The translations under genes were made by a program, and so were the position numbers. DNA of 64,000 nucleotides from Neobacillus sp. PS3-34 (lineage in GTDB: Bacteria; Bacillota; Bacilli; Bacillales; Cytobacillaceae): assembly GCF_030915465.1 (NCBI RefSeq), contig NZ_CP133267.1, positions 1 to 64,000 on the forward strand, in the 5' to 3' direction. Within the stretch, counting starts at the first letter, position 1. Each line of letters begins with the position of its first letter. The notes beneath the pieces were generated by a model. It ran no database searches. It worked only from the letters and a program-made list of their open reading frames with translations, and was not told the origin of the DNA. This document shows positions 1,388-26,363 of this stretch, piece by piece.

Positions 1388-1592
1388 AGAAAAACTGCAC
1401 CTCCGTATGTTAGTAAGTGTCTAACAATCGGGGTGCAGTTCAATTTGCGGCGAGTTTTCTTTTTTTATATGCCAATTTCAATGTCAAAACTACTGTCATT
1501 TCGGTACAATTTTTTAGAAAAACACCTCAAAAAGGGAATCCGTTAATAACATACTCCGTATTTTTTACTGTTCCAATTATGTCATTTCTCCC

Positions 1593-3179
1593 TTAGCTAT
1601 GCAGATTCCCTTTTAACCAGGCGCGTGGACGGAAGGGACCAACAGGAATATGGATTAAACTGGTTTTCCCTTTCGTTTCGAGTTGGTAAAGTTCATCACA
1701 CGATTTAGCATCAAATCCGAGAAGTGGGTGGCCACCCATCCCTAATGAGCCCGCCGCCAAGAGGAGCCGCTGCACATGAATGCCCGCTTCCATCTGCTGA
1801 ATACGATATCCTCTAACTCCCAATTCCTCCATCAGATGTTCCCTGTCACCCACTAAATGGAAGCAGAGTGGGACCTGAAAAAGATTCACATTATCCATCG
1901 ACAATCCATATTGTAGATATCCCCGCTGATCCCCTGACGATATTCTTCGAAGGGCATGAGTATTTTTGTCATAAGAGTATGCCCCATCTGGAACTCCCTC
2001 TATATTATAAAAATAACCATACAAATCGACACGGCACTCACCATTTTCATTTGGCTCATCGAGGTCATTCAGATAGGAGAAAGAAAATGTTTCTGTTAAC
2101 AAAGTGGATAGATGTGTTTGGCTCACTTTTCCCATTATAAAATCGATATCAGGAGAATGCCGTTTCCTGCAAACGGCTGCGAGATCGTACGAAACGGACT
2201 CCGTGTATGGCAGCATGATCGTCTCCATGCCTAAGGAAGACTTCAAACTGCGGTCCTTCTTTAACTTCACAAATGAGTTTGTCGTTTCTAACATCGATGC
2301 TTCATTAAGCTCTCGCAGCATCGGATAATCAATGACTCTCTTAGATCGGTTATAGTATTCATGCTGCTGTTCCGGTATTTCCCGGCACAATTCAGTGGAA
2401 GAAACCGTTTCTTCGCTTCTATTTTCGTTGTTAACCCAAAAGATCGATTGAGTATTAGACAATGGGATAAGCGCATATACACTTTCATCCTGTTCGGATA
2501 GCCCGAGTAAATGATTGATTGCCCGATCAAGAAATTGATAGCATACTCTTGAAGTAAAACCCATCCGATCCGCTACTTCCAACGATTGCCCAATTAACAC
2601 ACCGGCATCTAACCCTTGGAGCCTGTATGAAAAATTATTATATTTATAGTAATTTTTCCAAAACATCGTCGAGATAAAAACGGTGCAAAAACTATCTGAG
2701 ATCTCTACACTATTTCCAAGGCTTCTTGATAAATAGGAATCATAATTTCCTTCTCGCAGCAATATGAGGCGGTGATGTGCTGCGTCATATTGATAGATTC
2801 CCTTTGGTACCTCTTCCAGCTTTAAATACACGTATAATTCACTAGGATACAGCGCACCGCCCGAGGGAACAAATCGCCTTAGTGAATGTGTAAAACTCAC
2901 AGATTCATCCGCGGTGACAACAGGTTTAGCAAATTGAGAGAATTGAGAAATGCCGAATACGTACCACAGGAAATGGCCTACTTCTTCTAAGCTCGGGGTT
3001 CCATTCTTTTCCCGTCCAGTGAATGTTAACGGTACATCTGCCGGAAGTGGAATCTCCTGGAGACCACGATACAGTTTATAGGGGAGTGGCGCGTCCTCCC
3101 AATCCACCTGCCAATCCGGCGGAAAGATTTTATCTGGGTCAAAATGGAGATTGTGTAGAAAAGTTTCTAGCTTCAACAT
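1593..3179 (-). CDS. SagB-type FMN-dependent azoline dehydrogenase of the TOMM cluster
   Basis: This is the last gene of the TOMM operon. It resembles SagB-family nitroreductase-fold dehydrogenases, which use FMN to oxidise thiazolines/oxazolines in the precursor to thiazoles/oxazoles. Two tandem nitroreductase-like halves are visible: YRLQGLDAGVLIGQSLEVAD about residues 190-210 and QQMEAGIHVQRLLLAAGSLGMGG near the C-terminus, as in the long (about 530-residue) Bacillus members. I chose the ATG at 3179 (MLKLETFLHNL) because AGGAGG lies just upstream; longer in-frame starts have no such site and run into the YcaO gene. The gene starts 20 bp after the YcaO stop and is therefore cotranscribed and probably coupled. 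Confidence 0.85.
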   Translation of the reverse strand: MLKLETFLHNLHFDPDKIFPPDWQVDWEDAPLPYKLYRGLQEIPLPADVPLTFTGREKNGTPSLEEVGHFLWYVFGISQFSQFAKPVVTADESVSFTHSLRRFVPSGGALYPSELYVYLKLEEVPKGIYQYDAAHHRLILLREGNYDSYLSRSLGNSVEISDSFCTVFISTMFWKNYYKYNNFSYRLQGLDAGVLIGQSLEVADRMGFTSRVCYQFLDRAINHLLGLSEQDESVYALIPLSNTQSIFWVNNENRSEETVSSTELCREIPEQQHEYYNRSKRVIDYPMLRELNEASMLETTNSFVKLKKDRSLKSSLGMETIMLPYTESVSYDLAAVCRKRHSPDIDFIMGKVSQTHLSTLLTETFSFSYLNDLDEPNENGECRVDLYGYFYNIEGVPDGAYSYDKNTHALRRISSGDQRGYLQYGLSMDNVNLFQVPLCFHLVGDREHLMEELGVRGYRIQQMEAGIHVQRLLLAAGSLGMGGHPLLGFDAKSCDELYQLETKGKTSLIHIPVGPFRPRAWLKGNLHS

Positions 3180-3198
3180 TCTGCCTCCTACTCTTCGA

Positions 3199-5135
3199 TT
3201 ATGGGAACGGATGAGGATGTGGATTAAGCTGTGCAAACGATAACGGCTGCTTCTTATATCCAAGCTTCATTGGGACTGTAAGGACCCTTTCCAGTCCTTT
3301 CACACGAGTTAGGTGATGTCCAAATGTCATTGGCAGCATACCAGGAATCAACACCTTTACACAGAATAATCCGTTCCGTTTGGTTACAGGTGTTGACTGA
3401 TCAACCACAATGACCTCGAGGTTTAACTTGCGAAACCTTTGAAGAATGTCTTCTAGATCATCCTTCAAATCCGAGAACTTTGGCTGCAGCTTGAATTCCT
3501 CCTCAAAAGTACGTAAAGGACGATTATCCTCCAATAAAAATTTCAAGCGAATCTCTGCTTCTGGAAGACCGTACAACATGCCATGGTCCTCCATCGTTTG
3601 GACTGCGAACGGATCATATAACATACGTTCATAATTTTGCCTGTTAGCCGCCAGTTTTTCGTCATGCCTCTTCATCATGCCTGCCAGCTCGTAAATCGCA
3701 CTTTTTACTGCCCTTCGAGGATCGGGATTGGCTCCGGCTGCACAAATAAGGTTTACACCCTTGGAGGTATTGTTTTTTGCTACACCAAATACACTTGGAA
3801 TACCATGTTCCATCGTCGAATTGTAAAAATAAAGATCGAACCCCTCCACCTCACGTATACGGTCGACCATCAGCTGCAATTCTTTATCGTCAACTGAACG
3901 AAGGTCAAGACGCGGGAGTGGCAGCTGTGCATACCAGGTTAACAGGAATGAATCGCGCTCAACGACCTCCATAATGGCATGAAAAATCGCTTCCTCCATA
4001 CTTCCCCCTAATGCACATCCGTTTGAGGTTTCATAAACAACACCTTCCCCGTGCCCCAAACTATAATAAGCGAGTAACTCCGGAACCAGAATCGGACGTT
4101 CTTGTAAAAACGAATAGCCCCAGACCCAATTCATTAGGTCATCTGGACGAAACGGTTTAAATGGGAAACCAGGTATTGCATATTGTTCCTTTTCATGTAA
4201 TCCCACTCTGGCAGGATGTAGCGCTATATTCTCCAAATTGCGGTAACTATCACGAACTACTCTCCTTTTGCCCCGAGGTTCGAGCCCGCAGTATCGCTCC
4301 AATCCTTCTAAAATGGCCGTTAGCTCACTCATCTCATATGAATTAGTACGGCCAGCCACTCCCTCGTCTGCTCCAAACAACGGCATATTTACATAGATAT
4401 CCGCAAATGGCAGCGTGAAATCCTGGATTTTTGCGTTCATGATCCCAGTCCGATAATCCAGATAATCTTTGACCAGGACATTTTTTAATTCATCCATCGA
4501 ACGGCAGCGATACCCATCCTCATTAAGTTTAGGACTTGGTTTTAACCTAATTTTAGCTGATGCTGGTGTGTCATTAGGTATGGGACTGCAAACCGTACAC
4601 AAAGGATCAGGCAAAAAAAAGTGGCTTGAGGTCGATAACGTTCTGAGATTCGTCATATACACTCTTTCTTCTAAGTAGGAGCGCTCCCCTTTAAGGGCCT
4701 TCTGCACATCCTCACTTATCAAAAATGCCATTTGTGTTAATCCAGTTCGTGATACCCATGCATCACGCGGAAACCCTCTTTCTGCCATTCTCATCTGAAG
4801 CTCCAACATTTCTTGACGATCTGGTCCAGCTATTATCCTCCGTATGTCGGCACATTGAGAACATCCCGGTTTATCGGCCGAACATATGGACCGATGATTC
4901 CTTCCCCGAAAGAGACGAAACCTCGAAGCCATGGAATTCCTGCCTTCCTCAATCTCTCCTCCGCTTTTCGATGTATGGCTGGATGCCAGGCGTCGTGCAA
5001 TAATAAAGCTAATTTCGTATCTTCGGGAAACTCTTCTAAAATGTTTTGACGTTTTACAGAATAGTTGCACGACAATTGATCATAGACAAGATCCGCTAAT
5101 AAACCCTCTCCATCCATTAAAATAAGGGCAGCCAT
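3199..5135 (-). pseudogene. YcaO cyclodehydratase with fused leader-binding domain (single-base frameshift near 4875)
   Basis: This is the core TOMM enzyme: an ATP-dependent cyclodehydratase turning Cys/Ser of the precursor into azolines. The N-terminus (MAALILMDGEGLLADLVYD... FVSFGEGIIGPYVRP) lies in one frame from the ATG at 5135. The rest, from KPGCSQCADIRR onward, lies in another, so one base is missing at about 4874-4880; an extra G giving CGG CCG GAT AAA CCG would restore it. Downstream the CxxC cluster, the YcaO ATP-site glutamates (SELTAILEGLERY; EEAIFHAIMEVVERD) and the proline-rich tail NPHPHPFP expected of TOMM YcaO proteins are intact. The start overlaps the previous stop as TGATG. 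The break could be a sequencing indel or a real knockout; no convincing slippery heptamer is present. Confidence 0.85.
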
Positions 5136-7093
5136 CAGGATTCCCCCTCTCCTAGCTGCACACCATAGACCCCTGCCAGTTCATGCTTTAAAAAAGGCTC
5201 AAAGGCAAAATCATATACAAGTAGCTGCTTGCCGTTGCGGTTTAAATTTTTAATGGAGTATTGTAATAGCTCCAAGTGGTTTGTATCTTCGAATGAAGGG
5301 ATATCAAGTTTAAATTCCTTTTCCTTAAGTAAAACGGCTGACTCCGCTTGTCTAACTGTTGAATTCACCTGATTTTGTGTATCAAAAATTGCTTGTTGCA
5401 GCGCACTTCTTAAGGCTAAAGTGGAATGTAAACCTGTGGAAGTGTAACGACGGCCTAGTGTCCTTACCCATATCACGGGAAACCCTAGCATCTCCTTTTC
5501 CAAGCCGATTAACGGTTCCCCATTTAAAGTAGTCAGTGCATTTAAATAAAATCTGCAGCGTTGATCTTCTATCGTTCCCAGGTGTACGCGAAAAATCGTT
5601 TTCAGCGGTTCATCTTGTCTTCTTGTCAATTCCTCTTCTAAATATTCATACAGCCCTCTACAAACAGCCTCTTCGATTGTTGCTCCTGCTCCAATGCCAA
5701 TAAATCCATCCTGTATGTTGATGCCAGCATTTCCTTGCTGTTCTTTGAATCCCATAACGGCTGAATCTATCATTTTTGACACATACATTTCAATGCCCTT
5801 AAGCCCAGCTTCCCTTTTTGCTTCCTCATGTGTTAGACCCGAACAGATTACCTCATGCAGGAGGTCTGCAGGTCCCTCTGATAATGGGTTAACTGCCTGA
5901 ACATAGCACTGAGAAAGAGGAAGCTGGGTCAGATCTCGTTCCTCCCAGGTATGGAAAATCCCTGTTTCTTCTGAGGTTAATCCACTGAAAAATTCCAAGA
6001 GATTATCCTTTGATCCATTTCTTTCCGATACCTCCATCAGCCTTACTTCAAGATCTTCAACCAAACTAGGGTTAAAGCTTTTAGACGTAACTAATGGATG
6101 TGTAATGAATGAAAACCAGTCTCCTTCCAGTGTTTCAAGATCAAGCAGATAAATTTGATTACTTTGAATTAATCCATGAACTCCTGTTACCCTCTTGAAA
6201 CATTCAAACACCATAACATTAGCCAGAATCGATCCCGCTGTTGAGGAGAAAGTTTGCGGCTGCCGCTCTGCCTGCAATGCAGTTTGATGGATGCGGCGCC
6301 ATGCGGATTCCCAGCATTCCTCCGATTCCGGATGAACCAATGGGCCAGCCAGCCCCACTTGCTCTAACCATATTGCAGGTAGAAATGCCTTCCTCTCCTC
6401 TTTGCATACCTGATTTAGTTCCAAAAGTTCTTTTACATTTCCATCCTGGGAGACATACAGAATCCAATCATAAGGCTGCACTGCTTTTTTCCAAAAACTT
6501 CTCCCCTCCTCTTTATTAAAAGGGACCTCCTTTATCTCGACCTCAGAATCCGTCCTGCTAGCATTTTGTACCAGTTCTTTCAGCCGCAGCCGATTTGTGG
6601 GAAGTGAATCTGTTACCATAACATTCAACTTAGACAGTCCCGAATCGAGTAACGCAGTAGCCAATGAAACTAATAAGGGACCTGATCCGACAGCTAAGAC
6701 GTTAGCCTCGCGATACTCTTGAAAACGATAAGCACTGGAATCTACAAAATTCTCCAGGAATTCAATTTGTGAAGCGTATTTTTCAAGAATCAGGCTATTT
6801 AATTGATGTGGTGTATCTTGGCTTACATCACGAACAAAGCCATTCTTGTATAGCGCTTCTGCGATCTCATATACCCTGTTCCGATATGGAGGTGCTAATC
6901 CTTCTGTTAAATCTCCCAATGTTTGCCCCCCATTGAACATTGGCATCAATTTTTCAATCCATTGATAGATCGTATTGCCTTCCATTCGGAATGAACTTAC
7001 ATTATTTCTGAAATACACACCACCCTCCGGATCAGGGAGATAAAATGTATCTCTTTTTACCTTCAGACATGTCGACGAATTAAGTGTTGTCAT
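5135..7093 (-). CDS. ThiF-like thiazole-containing bacteriocin maturation protein
   Basis: This 652-residue protein matches the 'putative thiazole-containing bacteriocin maturation protein' family found beside YcaO in heterocycloanthracin-type clusters. The N-terminal region (LPDPEGGVYFRNNVSSFRMEG) looks like a RiPP leader-recognition-type domain. A Rossmann/E1-like segment follows around residues 125-260 (NVLAVGSGPLLVSLATALLDSG, ILYVSQDG), with no obvious catalytic Cys or ATP site. The C-terminal half contains a degenerate YcaO-like region (GIGAGATIEEAVCRGLYEYLEEEL). It probably presents the precursor to the YcaO enzyme. The start at 7093 is preceded by AAGGAGGGG. It ends in a TGATG overlap with the YcaO gene. 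Confidence 0.85.
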   Translation of the reverse strand: MTTLNSSTCLKVKRDTFYLPDPEGGVYFRNNVSSFRMEGNTIYQWIEKLMPMFNGGQTLGDLTEGLAPPYRNRVYEIAEALYKNGFVRDVSQDTPHQLNSLILEKYASQIEFLENFVDSSAYRFQEYREANVLAVGSGPLLVSLATALLDSGLSKLNVMVTDSLPTNRLRLKELVQNASRTDSEVEIKEVPFNKEEGRSFWKKAVQPYDWILYVSQDGNVKELLELNQVCKEERKAFLPAIWLEQVGLAGPLVHPESEECWESAWRRIHQTALQAERQPQTFSSTAGSILANVMVFECFKRVTGVHGLIQSNQIYLLDLETLEGDWFSFITHPLVTSKSFNPSLVEDLEVRLMEVSERNGSKDNLLEFFSGLTSEETGIFHTWEERDLTQLPLSQCYVQAVNPLSEGPADLLHEVICSGLTHEEAKREAGLKGIEMYVSKMIDSAVMGFKEQQGNAGINIQDGFIGIGAGATIEEAVCRGLYEYLEEELTRRQDEPLKTIFRVHLGTIEDQRCRFYLNALTTLNGEPLIGLEKEMLGFPVIWVRTLGRRYTSTGLHSTLALRSALQQAIFDTQNQVNSTVRQAESAVLLKEKEFKLDIPSFEDTNHLELLQYSIKNLNRNGKQLLVYDFAFEPFLKHELAGVYGVQLGEGES

Positions 7094-7177
7094 TTAGCCC
7101 CTCCTTATTCTTTATCGTTCCTGCTTATGCACTATCATTTTATGTACTTTTATTTGTCCAATATGATAAAACGTAAT

Positions 7178-7212
7178 AAAGTGCCCCTGCTGCAAACACG
7201 CAGGGACACTTT
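7178..7212 (-). terminator. Attenuator-like hairpin between precursor and maturation genes
   Basis: A near-perfect 13-bp stem (AAAGTGTCCCTGC paired with GCAGGGGCACTTT on the minus strand) lies directly after the precursor stop and before the maturation genes. The 3' tail is AT-rich rather than a clean T-run. It probably makes the precursor mRNA more abundant than the enzyme mRNA, a common arrangement in RiPP operons. Confidence 0.7.
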
Positions 7213-7248
7213 CCTTTTAAAATATAAACACATTTAACCCTTTCCGAA

Positions 7249-7569
7249 TTACCATCCCCAACCGCCCCAGCAGCTGGAACAGCCATAACAACCCCCACAG
7301 CTATAGCAGCTAAAACAGCCAAAGCAGCTTAAACCAAGACCAAGACCCAATCCAAAACCACCTAAACCGAAACCACCACATCGGAAGCCTCCGCAACGGA
7401 ACCCTCCACACCGGAATCCGCCACAACGAAAACCTCCGCATCCTCCGCACCGGCCACACCGGCGCAAGTCATTCATATTTTGCTGGCTCAAAGGATCTAT
7501 AGAATTTACCTCTCCAACATGGAATTGATCCAATCCTAACATTTGCAAATCATTATGAAAATTTTGCAT
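7249..7569 (-). CDS. Heterocycloanthracin/sonorensin-type TOMM precursor peptide
   Basis: This 106-residue peptide has a leader of about 37 residues (MQNFHNDLQMLGLDQF...MNDLRR). The core has three parts: an Arg/Cys/Gly tract with the unit RCGGF repeated, a Gly/Leu/Phe stretch (GFGLGGFGLGLGLGL) and a Cys/Ser/aromatic tail (SCFGCFSCYSC...SSCWGGWGW). I count 14 Cys and 5 Ser in the core as candidate cyclisation sites. The leader style and CGG-rich core match the heterocycloanthracin family. GGGGAGG lies a few bases upstream of the ATG. The modified product is expected to be an antibacterial peptide; no dedicated exporter or immunity gene is recognisable nearby. Confidence 0.9.
   Translation of the reverse strand: MQNFHNDLQMLGLDQFHVGEVNSIDPLSQQNMNDLRRCGRCGGCGGFRCGGFRCGGFRCGGFRCGGFGLGGFGLGLGLGLSCFGCFSCYSCGGCYGCSSCWGGWGW
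7373..7446. repeat. 15-bp tandem repeat coding for RCGGF units
   Basis: Five near-identical 15-bp units encode consecutive Arg-Cys-Gly-Gly-Phe blocks. Third positions differ between units, so the amino-acid repeat has been kept while synonymous changes accumulated. The repeat offers an easy route to change core length by recombination. Confidence 0.75.
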
Positions 7570-7776
7570 TTTTTCCTCCCCTTTGTATTTTAATTACACT
7601 CATAAGAGTAGAACGAAGGTAATTCATCAGGTTTGAGTAAATGAAAGATACCATGTGTACTCTCTTCAACAAAATATGAATCAAATTGGGGCATTGTTAC
7701 TGATTTAAGCGCCTATTTCACGTTGAGTATCTTAAAAAGTGGTGAGGTTCCTGGGAGTATTGGTTAATGGCCAAAA

Positions 7777-7806
7777 AAAGAGCCTGGAACATTTTCCAGA
7801 CTCTTT
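7777..7806 (-). terminator. Intrinsic terminator downstream of the GDPD gene
   Basis: Stem AAAGAG-CTGGAA with TTCCAG-CTCTTT around a short loop. A run of A on the plus strand makes a U-tract on the minus strand, so it terminates the GDPD gene. Confidence 0.75.
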
Positions 7807-7841
7807 ATCTATTAATCATTTAGCTTACTTATCTAAGTTTC

Positions 7842-8939
7842 TCACTTTGCAGGAGCCTTATAGCGCTTAGGCAATTTGAAACCACGCTGCTCCATAACCC
7901 CCCGCAGCCGATCCGGGTAGTCTGTGATAAGCCCGTCAACGCCGTCATCGATAAGCTTGTTCATGGTAGGCTCGTCGTCAATCGTCCACGGGATGACCTT
8001 CATTCCGTTCTTGTGAGCTTCCTGAACCATGCGCTTCGTCACATATGGCTCGTAGTTCTCATCAGTGATTTTGCCATTCTGCGGAAAACCATGCACTGGC
8101 GAGATTGCATTAGCGCCAAACGAGTGTGCCGCTGCCACGAGGTCGCCACCGAAGTCGTCGATGTCGATTCCGCCCAACCATGGAGAGGCACCCGGCTGGC
8201 CTGGCTGCAGGAATTGCGGCCCGTTGGTCAGGGCGACGAGTGGTAAGCGCGGCTCTACCTCGTGCATACGCATAAGTGAGCCCCAGTCGAAGCTTTGGAT
8301 TGACACTCGCTTGAGCATCCCGGCTTCGCGAACCTGGCGTGCAACAATCTGTACGAATTCTTCACGAGGAGCCGTTTCCTCCGGTGCGCCGGCTTCCACT
8401 TTTGTCTCGATGTTCATCCACACTTTGTTGGCATCATAGAGTTTGACGAGAGCGAACACCTCACTTAACAGTGGCATCTTAGAACCTGGACTCGTGCGCT
8501 GACCTGGGAATTGAGCCAACGCTTTCGATCCACAATCTAGTTTACGAACTTGAGCAAGGGTTAGGTCCTTTATGTATTTGCCAACGTAAGGGTATTCAGG
8601 GTCACCCGTGAACGCCGGTTCCGTGTCCTGGCACTTGTCGCCTGAAATTTTCCGGTCGTGAGATATGACAGCCTGGTGGTCCTTTGTGATCTGCACGTCA
8701 AGCTCAAGTGTGCTTACACCGACTTCAAGCCCTCTGGAGAACGAAGCAATCGTGGATTCGACGGTGAGACCTAATCCACCGCGATGGGCCTGCAGATCGA
8801 ACCCTTTTGGACCGTAGCTGGATTTGTCTGACCGGGATGGATTCTCAGCAGCGGACGCAGGTTTTGCTGTATCCAGGTCTGCCGCTGAACACACCATAAG
8901 GGTAGCTAATGTTGCTAATATAAATTTTTTCTTCTTCAT
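7842..8939 (-). CDS. Secreted glycerophosphodiester phosphodiesterase (GDPD)
   Basis: This hydrolyses glycerophosphodiesters to an alcohol and glycerol-3-phosphate outside the membrane. After a signal peptide (MKKKKFILATLATLMVCSAA, Ala-rich cleavage area) comes a full GDPD TIM barrel: FDLQAHRGGLGLTVESTIAS with the catalytic His-Arg and Glu, LELDVQITKDHQAVISHD with metal and acid/base residues, MNIETK, and GMKVIPWTIDD/GVDGLITDYPD near the end. It is visibly GC-richer than neighbours with different codon choice, which suggests acquisition. The ATG is preceded by AGGAGATG. Upstream, TTTACT-type hexamers in 11-bp phase suggest PhoP control, fitting a phosphate-scavenging role. Confidence 0.92.
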   Translation of the reverse strand: MKKKKFILATLATLMVCSAADLDTAKPASAAENPSRSDKSSYGPKGFDLQAHRGGLGLTVESTIASFSRGLEVGVSTLELDVQITKDHQAVISHDRKISGDKCQDTEPAFTGDPEYPYVGKYIKDLTLAQVRKLDCGSKALAQFPGQRTSPGSKMPLLSEVFALVKLYDANKVWMNIETKVEAGAPEETAPREEFVQIVARQVREAGMLKRVSIQSFDWGSLMRMHEVEPRLPLVALTNGPQFLQPGQPGASPWLGGIDIDDFGGDLVAAAHSFGANAISPVHGFPQNGKITDENYEPYVTKRMVQEAHKNGMKVIPWTIDDEPTMNKLIDDGVDGLITDYPDRLRGVMEQRGFKLPKRYKAPAK

Positions 8940-23913: not shown

Positions 23914-26363
23914 TTATTTCTGTTGCTTGCCTTCATTTTTCACCTTCGGATAGGATCCTTTGATCTTCTTCCAATTTTCTTTATTCAGTCTCTCCCGGTC
24001 AACCGAGTCTGGTTTCGAGAAATCCATATCCTTTGGATATAGAGTGGAGTTTGCTGCTGCAGCTGGTGTAGCATCGCCTTCTTCAGGCCAATATTTTGAC
24101 TGTTCAATCGAGTAAGGCTTGAAATTCGGCTTTGCTGTAAAGGAATTGAACATCGGGATTGCCGCAGACTCAAATTGTGTCATCGGCTTCAAGCCCATGA
24201 TCAACTCCATCGTCCGAAGAATGGCCGGTGTATCATAGAATGTGCTATCCACTTTGCCGATTTGCGTATACGGACTGATCGCAAGCGCTACACTTCGATG
24301 GGCATCCACATGGTCCACCCCACCCTGTGCATCATCCTCGACAACAAAAATGGCTGTATTTTTCCAATACTTTGAGTTACTGACGGTTTCAGTAAGCTTA
24401 CCTAACGCATAATCATTCTGTGCCACCATCTGTTGTGGTCCCCACTTCGAACCGCCAGTATGGTCATTAGGCAAATAAACCACTTCGAATTGAGGAAGAT
24501 TCCCGTTTTCTTCAAACTGTTTGAACTCCTTCTCCCACTCTTTATAACGAGCAGCATCGGAAATATCTAAATCCCAACTTGGATAGTGAGGATCATAATT
24601 GCCGCCAAAATCGGTTGTACCCGGATTATTTGGCAAGTATGTTTTCGTTGCCGGGTCATAATTATAGGCATATTCACCATAGTTGCGGAAAGAAAGGCCG
24701 CCTTCATGGCTACGTCCCAAATATACCCTGCTTTTGACCTGGTGTAAGGGGCTTCATCAAGGATGCCTCCTCCTCCTCCATCAAAATCATAATCACGGTT
24801 TCGGCCAGAGTAGTCTGCGAGCCAGTTCTTTTGGACATAATCATTGGCTTTCCCTGCGGTCGTCCAGTTATGGCCATCTGCACTTACCTCTGCATCTGCA
24901 TAAAAATTGTCCAGCGTCACAAATTGTTTTGCAAGCTTGTGTTGGTTAGGTGTTACTTCCTTGCCATAAATCGCTAAGTTAGGATCACCGTTTCCTTTCC
25001 CTAAATCTCCAAGTACATGGTCATACGTTTGATTTTCTTTAATTACATAAATAACATGTTTAATTGGTGATTTCCCTTCGCCAGGACTCCGCGGGATTGG
25101 AAAAGCTCCTTTATCCTGGTTATTTTTCCACCAGCCATTGGTTTTTGCTTCTTTAACATTGTTATTTTCGTTTGTCTGTTCAGTGTACGATTTTAACTGC
25201 TTGGTATCAGGCACCTCGATAATAGACATCGTTCCTTTTACCATGTTTCCGAGCCACTCATTTGTCTTATCGTTTGGCCCCGCACCAAGACCCTTTGCAT
25301 TCAGGACAAAAAGTTCCTTTTCATCCTTGCCAAGATAAACACCGGTCGGATACCAGGCTGTCGGAATGAGTCCTGTAACTTTTGCATTTTTAGATTCTTT
25401 GCCCAGGTCAATCACCGCGATATCATTGTTCAGGGAATTGGCTACATAAAGGGTTTGGCCGTCATTGCTTACTGTCAGGGCATCCGGCTGGCTTCCAGTT
25501 GGTGCGCCATGATATGGAGCAAGGGAAACGGTATCAATTACATTGAGCTGTTTGGAATCAATTATTGAAATCTCATCACTATCAGAATTCGCAACATAAA
25601 TGGTTCCATCCGCTGGATTCTCAGCAATAGCATTCGGATGGAGCCCTACCGCTACTGTCCTTTTAACAGAGAGATTCTTCGTATCCAGAACCGTGATGCT
25701 GCTCTCTCCCCAGTTGCTGACATAAAGTGACTGACCATCACGGCTGACAACAGCTGCGTATGGGCTTTTGCCAACATGTGAAGTTTTAGCGATTTGGTTC
25801 GAAGCAAGATCGATACTAGAAACCGAATGATCTAGATTATTAGCAACATAAAGGAATTTGCCGTCAGGAGAAACCGAAATCCCTGCCGGATAGAACTGTG
25901 TATTTTGGTCATCCTTCATTAAAATTGGTGCTTGTTCAGTAAGTGTTCCATTTATAAAATCGAACACACGTATCTTGTTATTTCCGCCAGCGGAGGCATA
26001 CATTTTTTTGCCGTCTGGGGAGAAGGCTACCCCAATATATAACGCTTCAGGAGATTCATAGGGAATGGTCTGTATGACCTCTTTACTTTTTGTATTTAAT
26101 ACCTGTAAAGACTGAGTTCCCTGTCCTGCGTTCGATACCACCACGAATTTTCCATCTGGAGATACCGCCCCACCCATTGGGAAATCTCCCAGTTTTATCT
26201 GTTTTCCAGCAGGTGTCAGGTGCCATCCATTTGGAGTTACAGAGGTGCCATCTCCCTGTGGTCCAGACAACAAAGTGTATGCAGCGGAAACGCTAGACCC
26301 AAAAAGTACTGATGCCAGCGCAGCCGAGGCGATAAGCTTTTTGCTGTTACCTTTAAACTTCAT
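23914..26363 (-). pseudogene. Secreted YncE-type beta-propeller / alkaline phosphatase-family phosphoesterase, paralogue 2 (frameshift near 24698)
   Basis: Same architecture and strong similarity to the neighbour at 21301-23660: signal peptide (LIASAALASVLFGSSVSAA), YVTN propeller blades, then KHVIYVIKENQTYDHVLGD, YADAEVSADGHNWTTAG and VVEDDAQGGVDHVDAHRS. The frame breaks after WDVAMKA; one extra G (GCGGGC for GCGGC) restores GLSFRNYGEY and the remaining 250 residues, giving about 816 in all. The tandem pair arose by duplication. The break sits near, but not at, the same codon as in paralogue 1, so the two are independent. TTTACT-N5-TTTAAA-N5-TAAACT lies upstream and may be a PhoP site. Confidence 0.85.

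What the first reader, a model, noticed from the sequence alone, without database searches (positions are those of the whole stretch)
1593..7569. TOMM cluster with a linked precursor of unusual three-part core
Seen directly: precursor, ThiF-like, YcaO and SagB genes lie consecutively on the minus strand with overlaps (TGATG) and a hairpin after the precursor. Known: many heterocycloanthracin-type precursors in the B. cereus group are not next to their enzymes; here they are. The core combines RCGGF repeats, a Gly/Leu stretch with no heterocyclisable residues, and a Cys/Ser/aromatic tail that recalls sonorensin. Inferred: two modified blocks joined by a hydrophobic linker. No exporter or immunity gene is visible, so export and self-protection are unexplained.
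Basis: partly seen in the sequence, partly recalled or inferred. Interest (0 to 1): 0.75.

Follow-up and report, generated by a model that had tools for sequence, protein, structure and literature searches.

The report
Sporulation-timed azole peptide gene cluster
This is a member of a known family of bacterial peptide-modifying gene clusters, and the control region in front of its peptide gene looks like the switch that spore-forming bacteria use in the dying mother cell, which could explain why no export or self-protection gene has been found.

Summary
The genes are real. The cluster is a heterocycloanthracin/sonorensin-type TOMM set: precursor (TIGR03601), F protein (TIGR03693), fused cyclodehydratase (TIGR03882+TIGR03604) and SagB dehydrogenase (TIGR03605). 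However, 12 of 32 testable genes in a sample of this genome (that one included) are frame-broken, so an assembly error is likelier than decay.

A precursor in the enzymes' locus is normal: 71 of 79 named relatives have one. The two-block core is shared with others. The 16-residue Gly/Leu linker is rare, the longest of 217 precursors; Neobacillus drentensis has 15.

The new point is upstream. Precursors share a GerE-like box plus a sigma-K-type promoter. In the two main sets 49 of 81 and 34 of 75 upstreams carry the full pattern, against 0 in 100 shuffles and 2 of 593 neighbouring upstreams. Of ten exact matches in this genome, two others lie just before a CotD and a gerPA/gerPF homologue. This points to late mother-cell expression; release by lysis or deposition on the spore would explain the missing exporter and immunity genes. 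No expression data were available, and more distant groups match the exact pattern poorly (3 of 65).

The parts
7707..7718 (-). GerE-like box AAATAGGCGCTT, upstream of the precursor promoter
   Evidence: Coordinates; conserved in relatives; GerE consensus RWWTRGGYNNYY recalled
7671..7697 (-). sigma-K-type promoter AC-N17-CATATTTT; the -10 element is 7671-7678
   Evidence: profile of 143 anchored promoters
7570..7670 (-). 5' leader of the precursor mRNA (start site inferred), ending in the ribosome-binding site AAAGGGGAGG
7252..7569 (-). precursor peptide gene, 106 aa: leader about 1-36, RCGGF block, Gly/Leu linker, Cys/Ser/aromatic tail ending CWGGWGW
   Evidence: TIGR03601, 61.8 bits against cut-off 35
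7178..7212 (-). hairpin between precursor and F gene; possible partial terminator (it lacks the T-run that the terminator scan asks for)
   Evidence: -22.9 kcal/mol here; over 71 precursor-F gaps the median best hairpin is -22.9 against -11.9 for shuffles; not listed by the terminator scan
5138..7093 (-). F protein (ocin-ThiF-like, leader-binding), 652 aa
   Evidence: TIGR03693, 776 bits against cut-off 561.9; only match in the genome
4836..5135 (-). N-terminal part of the fused cyclodehydratase, first frame (100 aa)
3202..4932 (-). rest of the fused cyclodehydratase (C-domain remainder plus YcaO), second frame; frame-broken with respect to the first
   Evidence: TIGR03604 410 bits, TIGR03882 123 bits; only SagD-type match in the genome
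1596..3179 (-). SagB-family FMN dehydrogenase (B protein)
   Evidence: TIGR03605, 204 bits against cut-off 78.4; B in 75 of 79 named relatives

Best explanation
A heterocycloanthracin/sonorensin-type TOMM cluster whose precursor is switched on in the mother cell late in sporulation, by RNA polymerase with sigma-K helped by GerE. Part of the transcripts would stop at the hairpin, giving much precursor and less enzyme. The F protein holds the leader, the fused cyclodehydratase turns core Cys (perhaps some Ser) into azolines, and SagB oxidises them to azoles, in two blocks joined by an unmodifiable Gly/Leu linker. The product leaves when the mother cell lyses, or stays on the spore, so neither a dedicated exporter nor an immunity gene is needed. 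Shown: gene families, neighbourhood, conserved promoter pattern, sigma-K and GerE homologues in the genome. Inferred: that sigma-K and GerE really drive it, the role of the hairpin, the chemistry (known for the family), the release route and the function. A working cyclodehydratase is assumed, since the break in this assembly is probably an error.
For: Family hits over curated cut-offs. Set 1, 81 unique precursor upstreams: GerE box 62, sigma-K pattern 60, both in order 49; 100 dinucleotide shuffles gave means 3.9, 3.0 and 0 (maximum 10, 8, 0). 593 upstreams of other ORFs in the same loci gave 24, 28 and 2; 82 F-gene upstreams gave 4, 2 and 0. Set 2, 75 order-level upstreams with precursors identical to set 1 removed: 40, 65 and 34; shuffles 4.1, 2.7 and 0. 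Box to -10 spacing is 39 or 40 in 48 of 49 full matches of set 1 and in 38 of 38 among all 83 set-2 upstreams. In the class-level sample, 15 precursors without an F match in the fetched stretch include 11 with the sigma-K pattern; these 11 come from three genomes of one family and at least one looks accidental. Whole-genome search of the pattern: 10 matches against 3 for the reversed pattern; five have an ORF with an RBS-like start within 260 bp, among them this precursor, a gerPA/gerPF homologue and a CotD homologue. PMC517825 counts gerPA and gerE in the sigma-K regulon (passage). Sigma-K model over cut-off; 74-aa GerE-type protein whose own upstream has AC-N17-CATATGAT. The purine of TRGGY and the pyrimidine of the inverted CCYA are A-C, no base pair, in 42 of 118 sequences, which fits protein sites better than an RNA stem. 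No exporter or immunity family was seen to recur near the cluster.
Against: No RNA, protein or mass data. In the class-level sample the full pattern is in 3 of 65 and linked precursors match AC-N16-18-CATAnnnT in only 10 of 50. In set 1, 32 of 81 lack the full exact pattern. The -10 is followed by TG, where the recalled sigma-K consensus has TA. The GerE consensus is recalled, not read in a paper here; the only paper found with that string gives it for PedR. Two further genome matches lie 103 and 172 bp before ORFs not recognised as sporulation genes, and five of the ten have no such ORF. The CotZ upstream in this genome was uninformative. Related sequences are not independent events, and shuffles do not correct for that; the 593 control ORFs include genes inside operons, which need no promoter. 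Sonorensin is reported as an antimicrobial peptide purified from B. sonorensis (PMC4544038, passages). The cyclodehydratase of this assembly is frame-broken.
Confidence: 0.65

Rival explanations
1. An ordinary secreted bacteriocin made by growing or stationary cells. The exporter, leader protease and immunity gene are general or lie elsewhere in the genome.
For: Sonorensin is described as a bacteriocin that kills other bacteria (PMC4544038, passages). TOMM products are often exported (recalled). A heterocycloanthracin-family gene is up in B. cereus biofilms (PMC6962202, passages).
Against: The sigma-70-type scan of 1400-8000 finds nothing above chance (15 sites against a shuffle mean of 14.0), while the sigma-K-type promoter is strongly conserved. 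No transporter family was seen to recur next to the cluster: the one ABC-ATPase group is in 20 of 82 loci, 3.6-8.8 kb from F at scattered places. In the biofilm study sporulation genes rise too.
Confidence: 0.2
2. The modified peptide is a spore component (coat, crust or germination-related) rather than a weapon. The Cys/Gly/aromatic repeats serve cross-linking or protection.
For: The promoter pattern is shared with a CotD and a gerPA/gerPF homologue; low-complexity repeats of varying length; up to six precursors in one genome; no immunity gene seen.
Against: Cores differ strongly between species. The enzymes are of an antibiotic-making family. Reported antimicrobial activity of sonorensin.
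Confidence: 0.35
3. The cluster is decaying here: the cyclodehydratase is dead by frameshift and an IS3 element sits next to it, so no azoles are made.
For: Two frames in the only cyclodehydratase of the genome; IS3 genes at 42-1387; N. pocheonensis (L069) has split cyclodehydratase and SagB genes too.
Against: 11 of 31 other homologue-covered genes in the sampled genome are also frame-broken, among them malate:quinone oxidoreductase, SpoVR-family, Mrp/ApbC and TruA homologues. This points to a faulty assembly. Precursor, F and SagB are open.
Confidence: 0.15
4. The upstream block is, or includes, a transcribed RNA control element rather than only a promoter with protein sites.
For: Conservation continues past the -10 into the leader (GTTGAAGAGAGT); GAGAG...CTCTC complements in 39 of 54 leaders against a mean of 5.6 (maximum 10) when the part behind the first 20 nt is shuffled. 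A leader hairpin could coexist with the promoter.
Against: The two half-sites around the -35 are A-C in 42 of 118; no Rfam match at gathering strength. The alignment fold gave zero for real and shuffled alignments alike, so it is uninformative.
Confidence: 0.1

Closest known systems
Heterocycloanthracin (HCA) TOMMs, TIGR03601 (Haft 2009; Cox 2015)
   Same: Leader family, F protein, fused cyclodehydratase, SagB, Cys-rich repeated core
   Different: Precursor next to the enzymes (far away in most B. cereus-group genomes); aromatic tail and long Gly/Leu linker; a sporulation-type promoter is not mentioned in the text and passages read
Sonorensin (Bacillus sonorensis)
   Same: Same TIGR03601 family by model name; sonorensin predicted to be HCA-type (PMC4544038, passages)
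   Different: Core sequences were not compared here; sonorensin's repeat motif is recalled only
Neobacillus drentensis precursor (L008) and its cluster
   Same: Nearly the same three-part core (15-residue Gly/Leu linker, CWGGWGGW tail); F 74% identical
   Different: Cyclodehydratase in one frame; precursor 58% identical over 115 aligned positions
Sigma-K/GerE-controlled mother-cell genes (gerP, cotD type)
   Same: Promoter layout: RWWTRGGYNNYY box, AC, N16-17, CATAnnnT; matches also precede a gerPA/gerPF and a CotD homologue in this genome
   Different: Those genes encode coat or germination proteins, not a RiPP precursor

Membership tests
Heterocycloanthracin/sonorensin TOMM | Precursor scores above TIGR03601 cut-off | tested here: met
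   61.8 bits against 35
Heterocycloanthracin/sonorensin TOMM | Ocin-ThiF-like F protein (TIGR03693) | tested here: met
   776 bits against 561.9
Heterocycloanthracin/sonorensin TOMM | Fused C-D cyclodehydratase lacking about 100 N-terminal residues | tested here: inconclusive
   TIGR03882 and TIGR03604 both met in the main piece and 78 of 79 relatives have one ORF of 645-677 aa, but here the gene is in two frames; the missing N-terminal part was not measured
Heterocycloanthracin/sonorensin TOMM | SagB-type dehydrogenase in the cluster | tested here: met
   TIGR03605, 204 bits against 78.4
Heterocycloanthracin/sonorensin TOMM | Azol(in)e formation on the core | not testable with these tools
   Needs mass spectrometry
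Sigma-K/GerE mother-cell regulon | Sigma-K-type promoter upstream, conserved beyond chance | tested here: met
   Present in the window; 60 of 81 and 65 of 75 in sets 1 and 2; weaker in the class-level linked set (10 of 50)
Sigma-K/GerE mother-cell regulon | GerE-type box upstream | tested here: met
   Present in the window; 62 of 81 and 40 of 75, shuffle means about 4; consensus recalled
Sigma-K/GerE mother-cell regulon | Sigma-K and GerE present in the genome | tested here: met
   GerE named from length and PF00196 match, no equivalog model reached its cut-off
Sigma-K/GerE mother-cell regulon | Loss of expression in sigK or gerE mutants | not testable with these tools
   Bench test proposed

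The most novel reading that the evidence does not exclude
Heterocycloanthracin-type peptides in Bacillales are late-sporulation products: azole-rich peptides made in the mother cell under sigma-K and GerE, and released at lysis or laid on the spore. That is why this large RiPP family shows no dedicated exporter, protease or immunity gene. It would be a spore-borne weapon or coat component rather than a classical secreted bacteriocin.
Probability: 0.6. Interest if true: 0.8.

Novelty: new variant of a known kind. Interest (0 to 1): 0.6.

Why it matters
Heterocycloanthracins are one of the large TOMM groups (254 clusters in Cox 2015, passage), yet the text and passages read here leave their natural product, export and immunity open. 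A conserved mother-cell promoter would tell experimenters when and where to look (sporulating mother cells, lysates and spores rather than growing-culture supernatants) and would tie a RiPP family to endospore development. It can be tested directly in laboratory Bacillus.

Tried and rejected
Decay of the cluster through the cyclodehydratase break: set aside because 11 of 31 other genes in the sampled genome are likewise broken; some of those comparisons are at 47-57% identity and less certain. Linkage as the unusual feature: rejected. Nearby exporter: none seen to recur; short or fast-changing immunity proteins under 70 aa would have been missed. Plasmid-borne F relatives are few and distant (9 records, none covering 80% of F). 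Sigma-70 promoter: not above shuffles. Rfam: no match at gathering strength near the precursor. A common folded 5' leader: the alignment fold was uninformative. CotZ upstream as a control: by eye it lies behind coding-like sequence and says nothing; Coat_X has no match in this genome. Literature: searches found no paper; one search counted 12 papers holding both 'heterocycloanthracin' and 'sporulation', of which I read passages in two; neither set of passages gives sporulation control of these peptides, and the other ten were not opened for this.
Full report
What is there. On the minus strand at 1593-7569 lie a 106-aa precursor, an F protein, a fused cyclodehydratase and a SagB dehydrogenase. 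They hit their curated families above cut-off: TIGR03601 61.8 bits (cut-off 35), TIGR03693 776, TIGR03604 410 with TIGR03882 123, TIGR03605 204. Searches of the genome (one 4.90 Mb contig) found one F protein, one SagD-type domain and one TIGR03601 precursor. The F and cyclodehydratase genes overlap by TGATG. A strong hairpin separates precursor and F gene. In 71 such gaps of set 1 the median best 50-nt hairpin is -22.9 kcal/mol against -11.9 for shuffles. It has no T-run and the terminator scan does not list it, so its role is open.

The cyclodehydratase is in two frames: 100 aa at 4836-5135, then the rest at 3202 to about 4932. In 78 of 79 named relatives it is one ORF; the exception is N. 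pocheonensis. To judge whether the break is real I compared 1661 proteins of other loci with the window and twenty 20 kb stretches of the same genome (464 kb). Of 32 genes covered at least 70% by a homologue of at least 45% identity, 12 need more than one frame; one of these is the cyclodehydratase itself. Homologues of the others include malate:quinone oxidoreductase, a SpoVR-family protein, Mrp/ApbC and TruA. With that background the break says little, and an assembly fault is the likelier reading. Intact copies exist in relatives.

Linkage. Among 79 named relatives found by the F protein, 71 have a TIGR03601-like precursor in the locus; the eight without are four Paenibacillus and four Fictibacillus records. 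Of 80 precursors in these loci, 69 lie within 600 nt upstream of F; eight loci have two or three precursors. In an order-level sample 87 of 397 genomes have a precursor. I examined 85 of those loci. By the first start rule 67 precursors in 67 loci were counted and all 67 have an F match in the same fetched stretch of 3-19 kb; 18 more were not counted because the start rule failed, and one locus gave no hit. A widened rule placed 83 precursors in 82 loci. So linkage is the rule in this order, and the distant precursors described by Haft 2009 (PMC2674419, whole text) belong to the B. cereus group.

The core. Of 218 distinct precursors of all three sets 217 could be scored (one with masked bases dropped). 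The window has the longest internal stretch without Cys, Ser or Thr (16 residues), followed by N. drentensis (15) and then 13. By a simple home-made rule the order RCGG block then aromatic block occurs in 30, the reverse in 24, mixed in 13; 150 were not classified. The best-scoring relatives of the whole precursor are L003 (61%) and L008 (58%). The three parts are real, and it is the long linker that is rare.

The promoter. Upstream of the precursor lie AAATAGGCGCTT (7707-7718) and AC-N17-CATATTTT (7671-7697). This fits the GerE consensus RWWTRGGYNNYY and the sigma-K consensus AC-N16/17-CATAnnnT, both recalled. PMC517825 describes a two-part sigma-K motif with a five-base -35 element and a ten-base -10 element 14-16 bases apart (passages). 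Set 1 (83 precursors from 71 named relatives, the window, L003 and L004; 81 unique upstreams): 62, 60 and 49 for box, promoter and both in order. Shuffles gave 3.9, 3.0 and 0; 593 other upstreams in the same loci gave 24, 28 and 2; 82 F upstreams gave 4, 2 and 0. Set 2 (75 upstreams, precursors identical to set 1 removed): 40, 65 and 34; shuffles 4.1, 2.7 and 0. Box-to-minus-10 spacing is 39 or 40 in 48 of 49 and 38 of 38 full matches.

Where it is weaker. In the class-level sample 68 of 398 genomes have a precursor, seven of them already in the order-level sample or the window. I examined 65 further loci and placed 65 precursors in 61 of them; the weakest listed matches were not fetched. The exact pattern is much weaker: box 24, promoter 16, both 3 of 65, with shuffle means 3.5, 1.8 and 0.02. 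With spacing 16-18 the promoter is in 10 of 50 with an F match (shuffle mean 1.7) and in 11 of 15 without one (0.8). Those 11 come from three genomes of one family, some of the stretches are only 3-10 kb long, and at least one match looks accidental. By eye many of the other linked ones show AAATGGGC and CATAAA or CATACA at another spacing, but several do not. Shuffles and neighbour controls do not correct for common descent; what they show is constraint.

Controls in the genome. The pattern occurs ten times in 4.9 Mb against three for the reversed pattern. Five of the ten have an ORF with an RBS-like start within 260 bp: this precursor (101 bp), a gerPA/gerPF homologue (31 bp; PF10676, 99 bits), a CotD homologue (38 bp; PF11122, 100 bits), and two ORFs not recognised as sporulation genes (103 and 172 bp, not run against a library); the other five have none. 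PMC517825 counts gerPA and gerE in the sigma-K regulon (passage); cotD as a sigma-K/GerE gene is recalled. A sigma-K match is over cut-off, and a 74-aa GerE-type protein is present with AC-N17-CATATGAT upstream of its own gene. The two half-sites around the -35 read A-C, no base pair, in 42 of 118. Conservation runs on into the leader, where GAGAG...CTCTC complements occur in 39 of 54 against 5.6 in shuffles, so a leader hairpin may exist as well.

How it would work. Reported for the family by others: F binds the leader and the truncated fused cyclodehydratase depends on it (PMC4603692, passages; PMC10634744, passages). Inferred here: sigma-K and GerE start transcription late in the mother cell; the hairpin keeps precursor in excess; modification happens in the mother-cell cytoplasm; the product is freed by mother-cell lysis or deposited on the spore. 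PMC517825 notes that the lysis enzymes CwlC and CwlH are themselves switched on by GerE (passage). No recurrent exporter, protease or immunity family was seen within about 8 kb. Apart from the four core genes only six ORF groups of 70 aa or more reach 6 of 82 loci; named by eye they are ABC ATPases (20 loci, scattered, 3.6-8.8 kb from F), an oxidoreductase, a response regulator, a GGDEF protein, an L,D-transpeptidase-like protein and a sensor kinase. A study of B. cereus biofilms reports a heterocycloanthracin-family gene and sporulation genes both raised (PMC6962202, passages), which is compatible but not proof.

Verdict. As a gene cluster this is a member of a known family with a rare long linker. 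The sporulation-type promoter, conserved over the order-level part of the family, is the part that would surprise a specialist and can be tested at once.

Noticed in passing
window:3202-5135 and L182-L201: The assembly seems full of frame breaks: 12 of 32 homologue-covered genes need more than one frame, so pseudogene calls in this genome are unsafe.
   Followed up: partly
window:21304-23660 and 23917-26363: Two tandem genes with beta-propeller plus phosphoesterase parts; in both, the phosphoesterase part lies mostly in a separate neighbouring ORF.
   Followed up: no
window:42-1387: IS3-family transposase genes directly downstream of the SagB gene.
   Followed up: no
L004, L056, L057, L059, L060 and others: Precursors with the two core blocks in reverse order (aromatic block first, GGRCGG block last); 24 of 217 by a simple rule.
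   Followed up: partly
window:7570-7670: The mRNA leader starts with a strongly conserved GTTGAAGAGAGT, and in relatives often has a CTCTC complement further on (39 of 54 leaders, shuffles 5.6).
   Followed up: partly
L220, L228, L234, L252 (G566) and L241, L242, L256, L266 (G576): Two genomes with six precursor matches each; all ten that were fetched have the sigma-K-type pattern (one probably by accident), and nine of the ten show no F match in the fetched stretch of 3-19 kb.
   Followed up: partly
L069: In N. pocheonensis both the cyclodehydratase and the SagB gene are split.
   Followed up: no
L073, L074, L076, L081: Paenibacillus loci with F and cyclodehydratase but no SagB match and no precursor found; possibly another azole class.
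   Followed up: no
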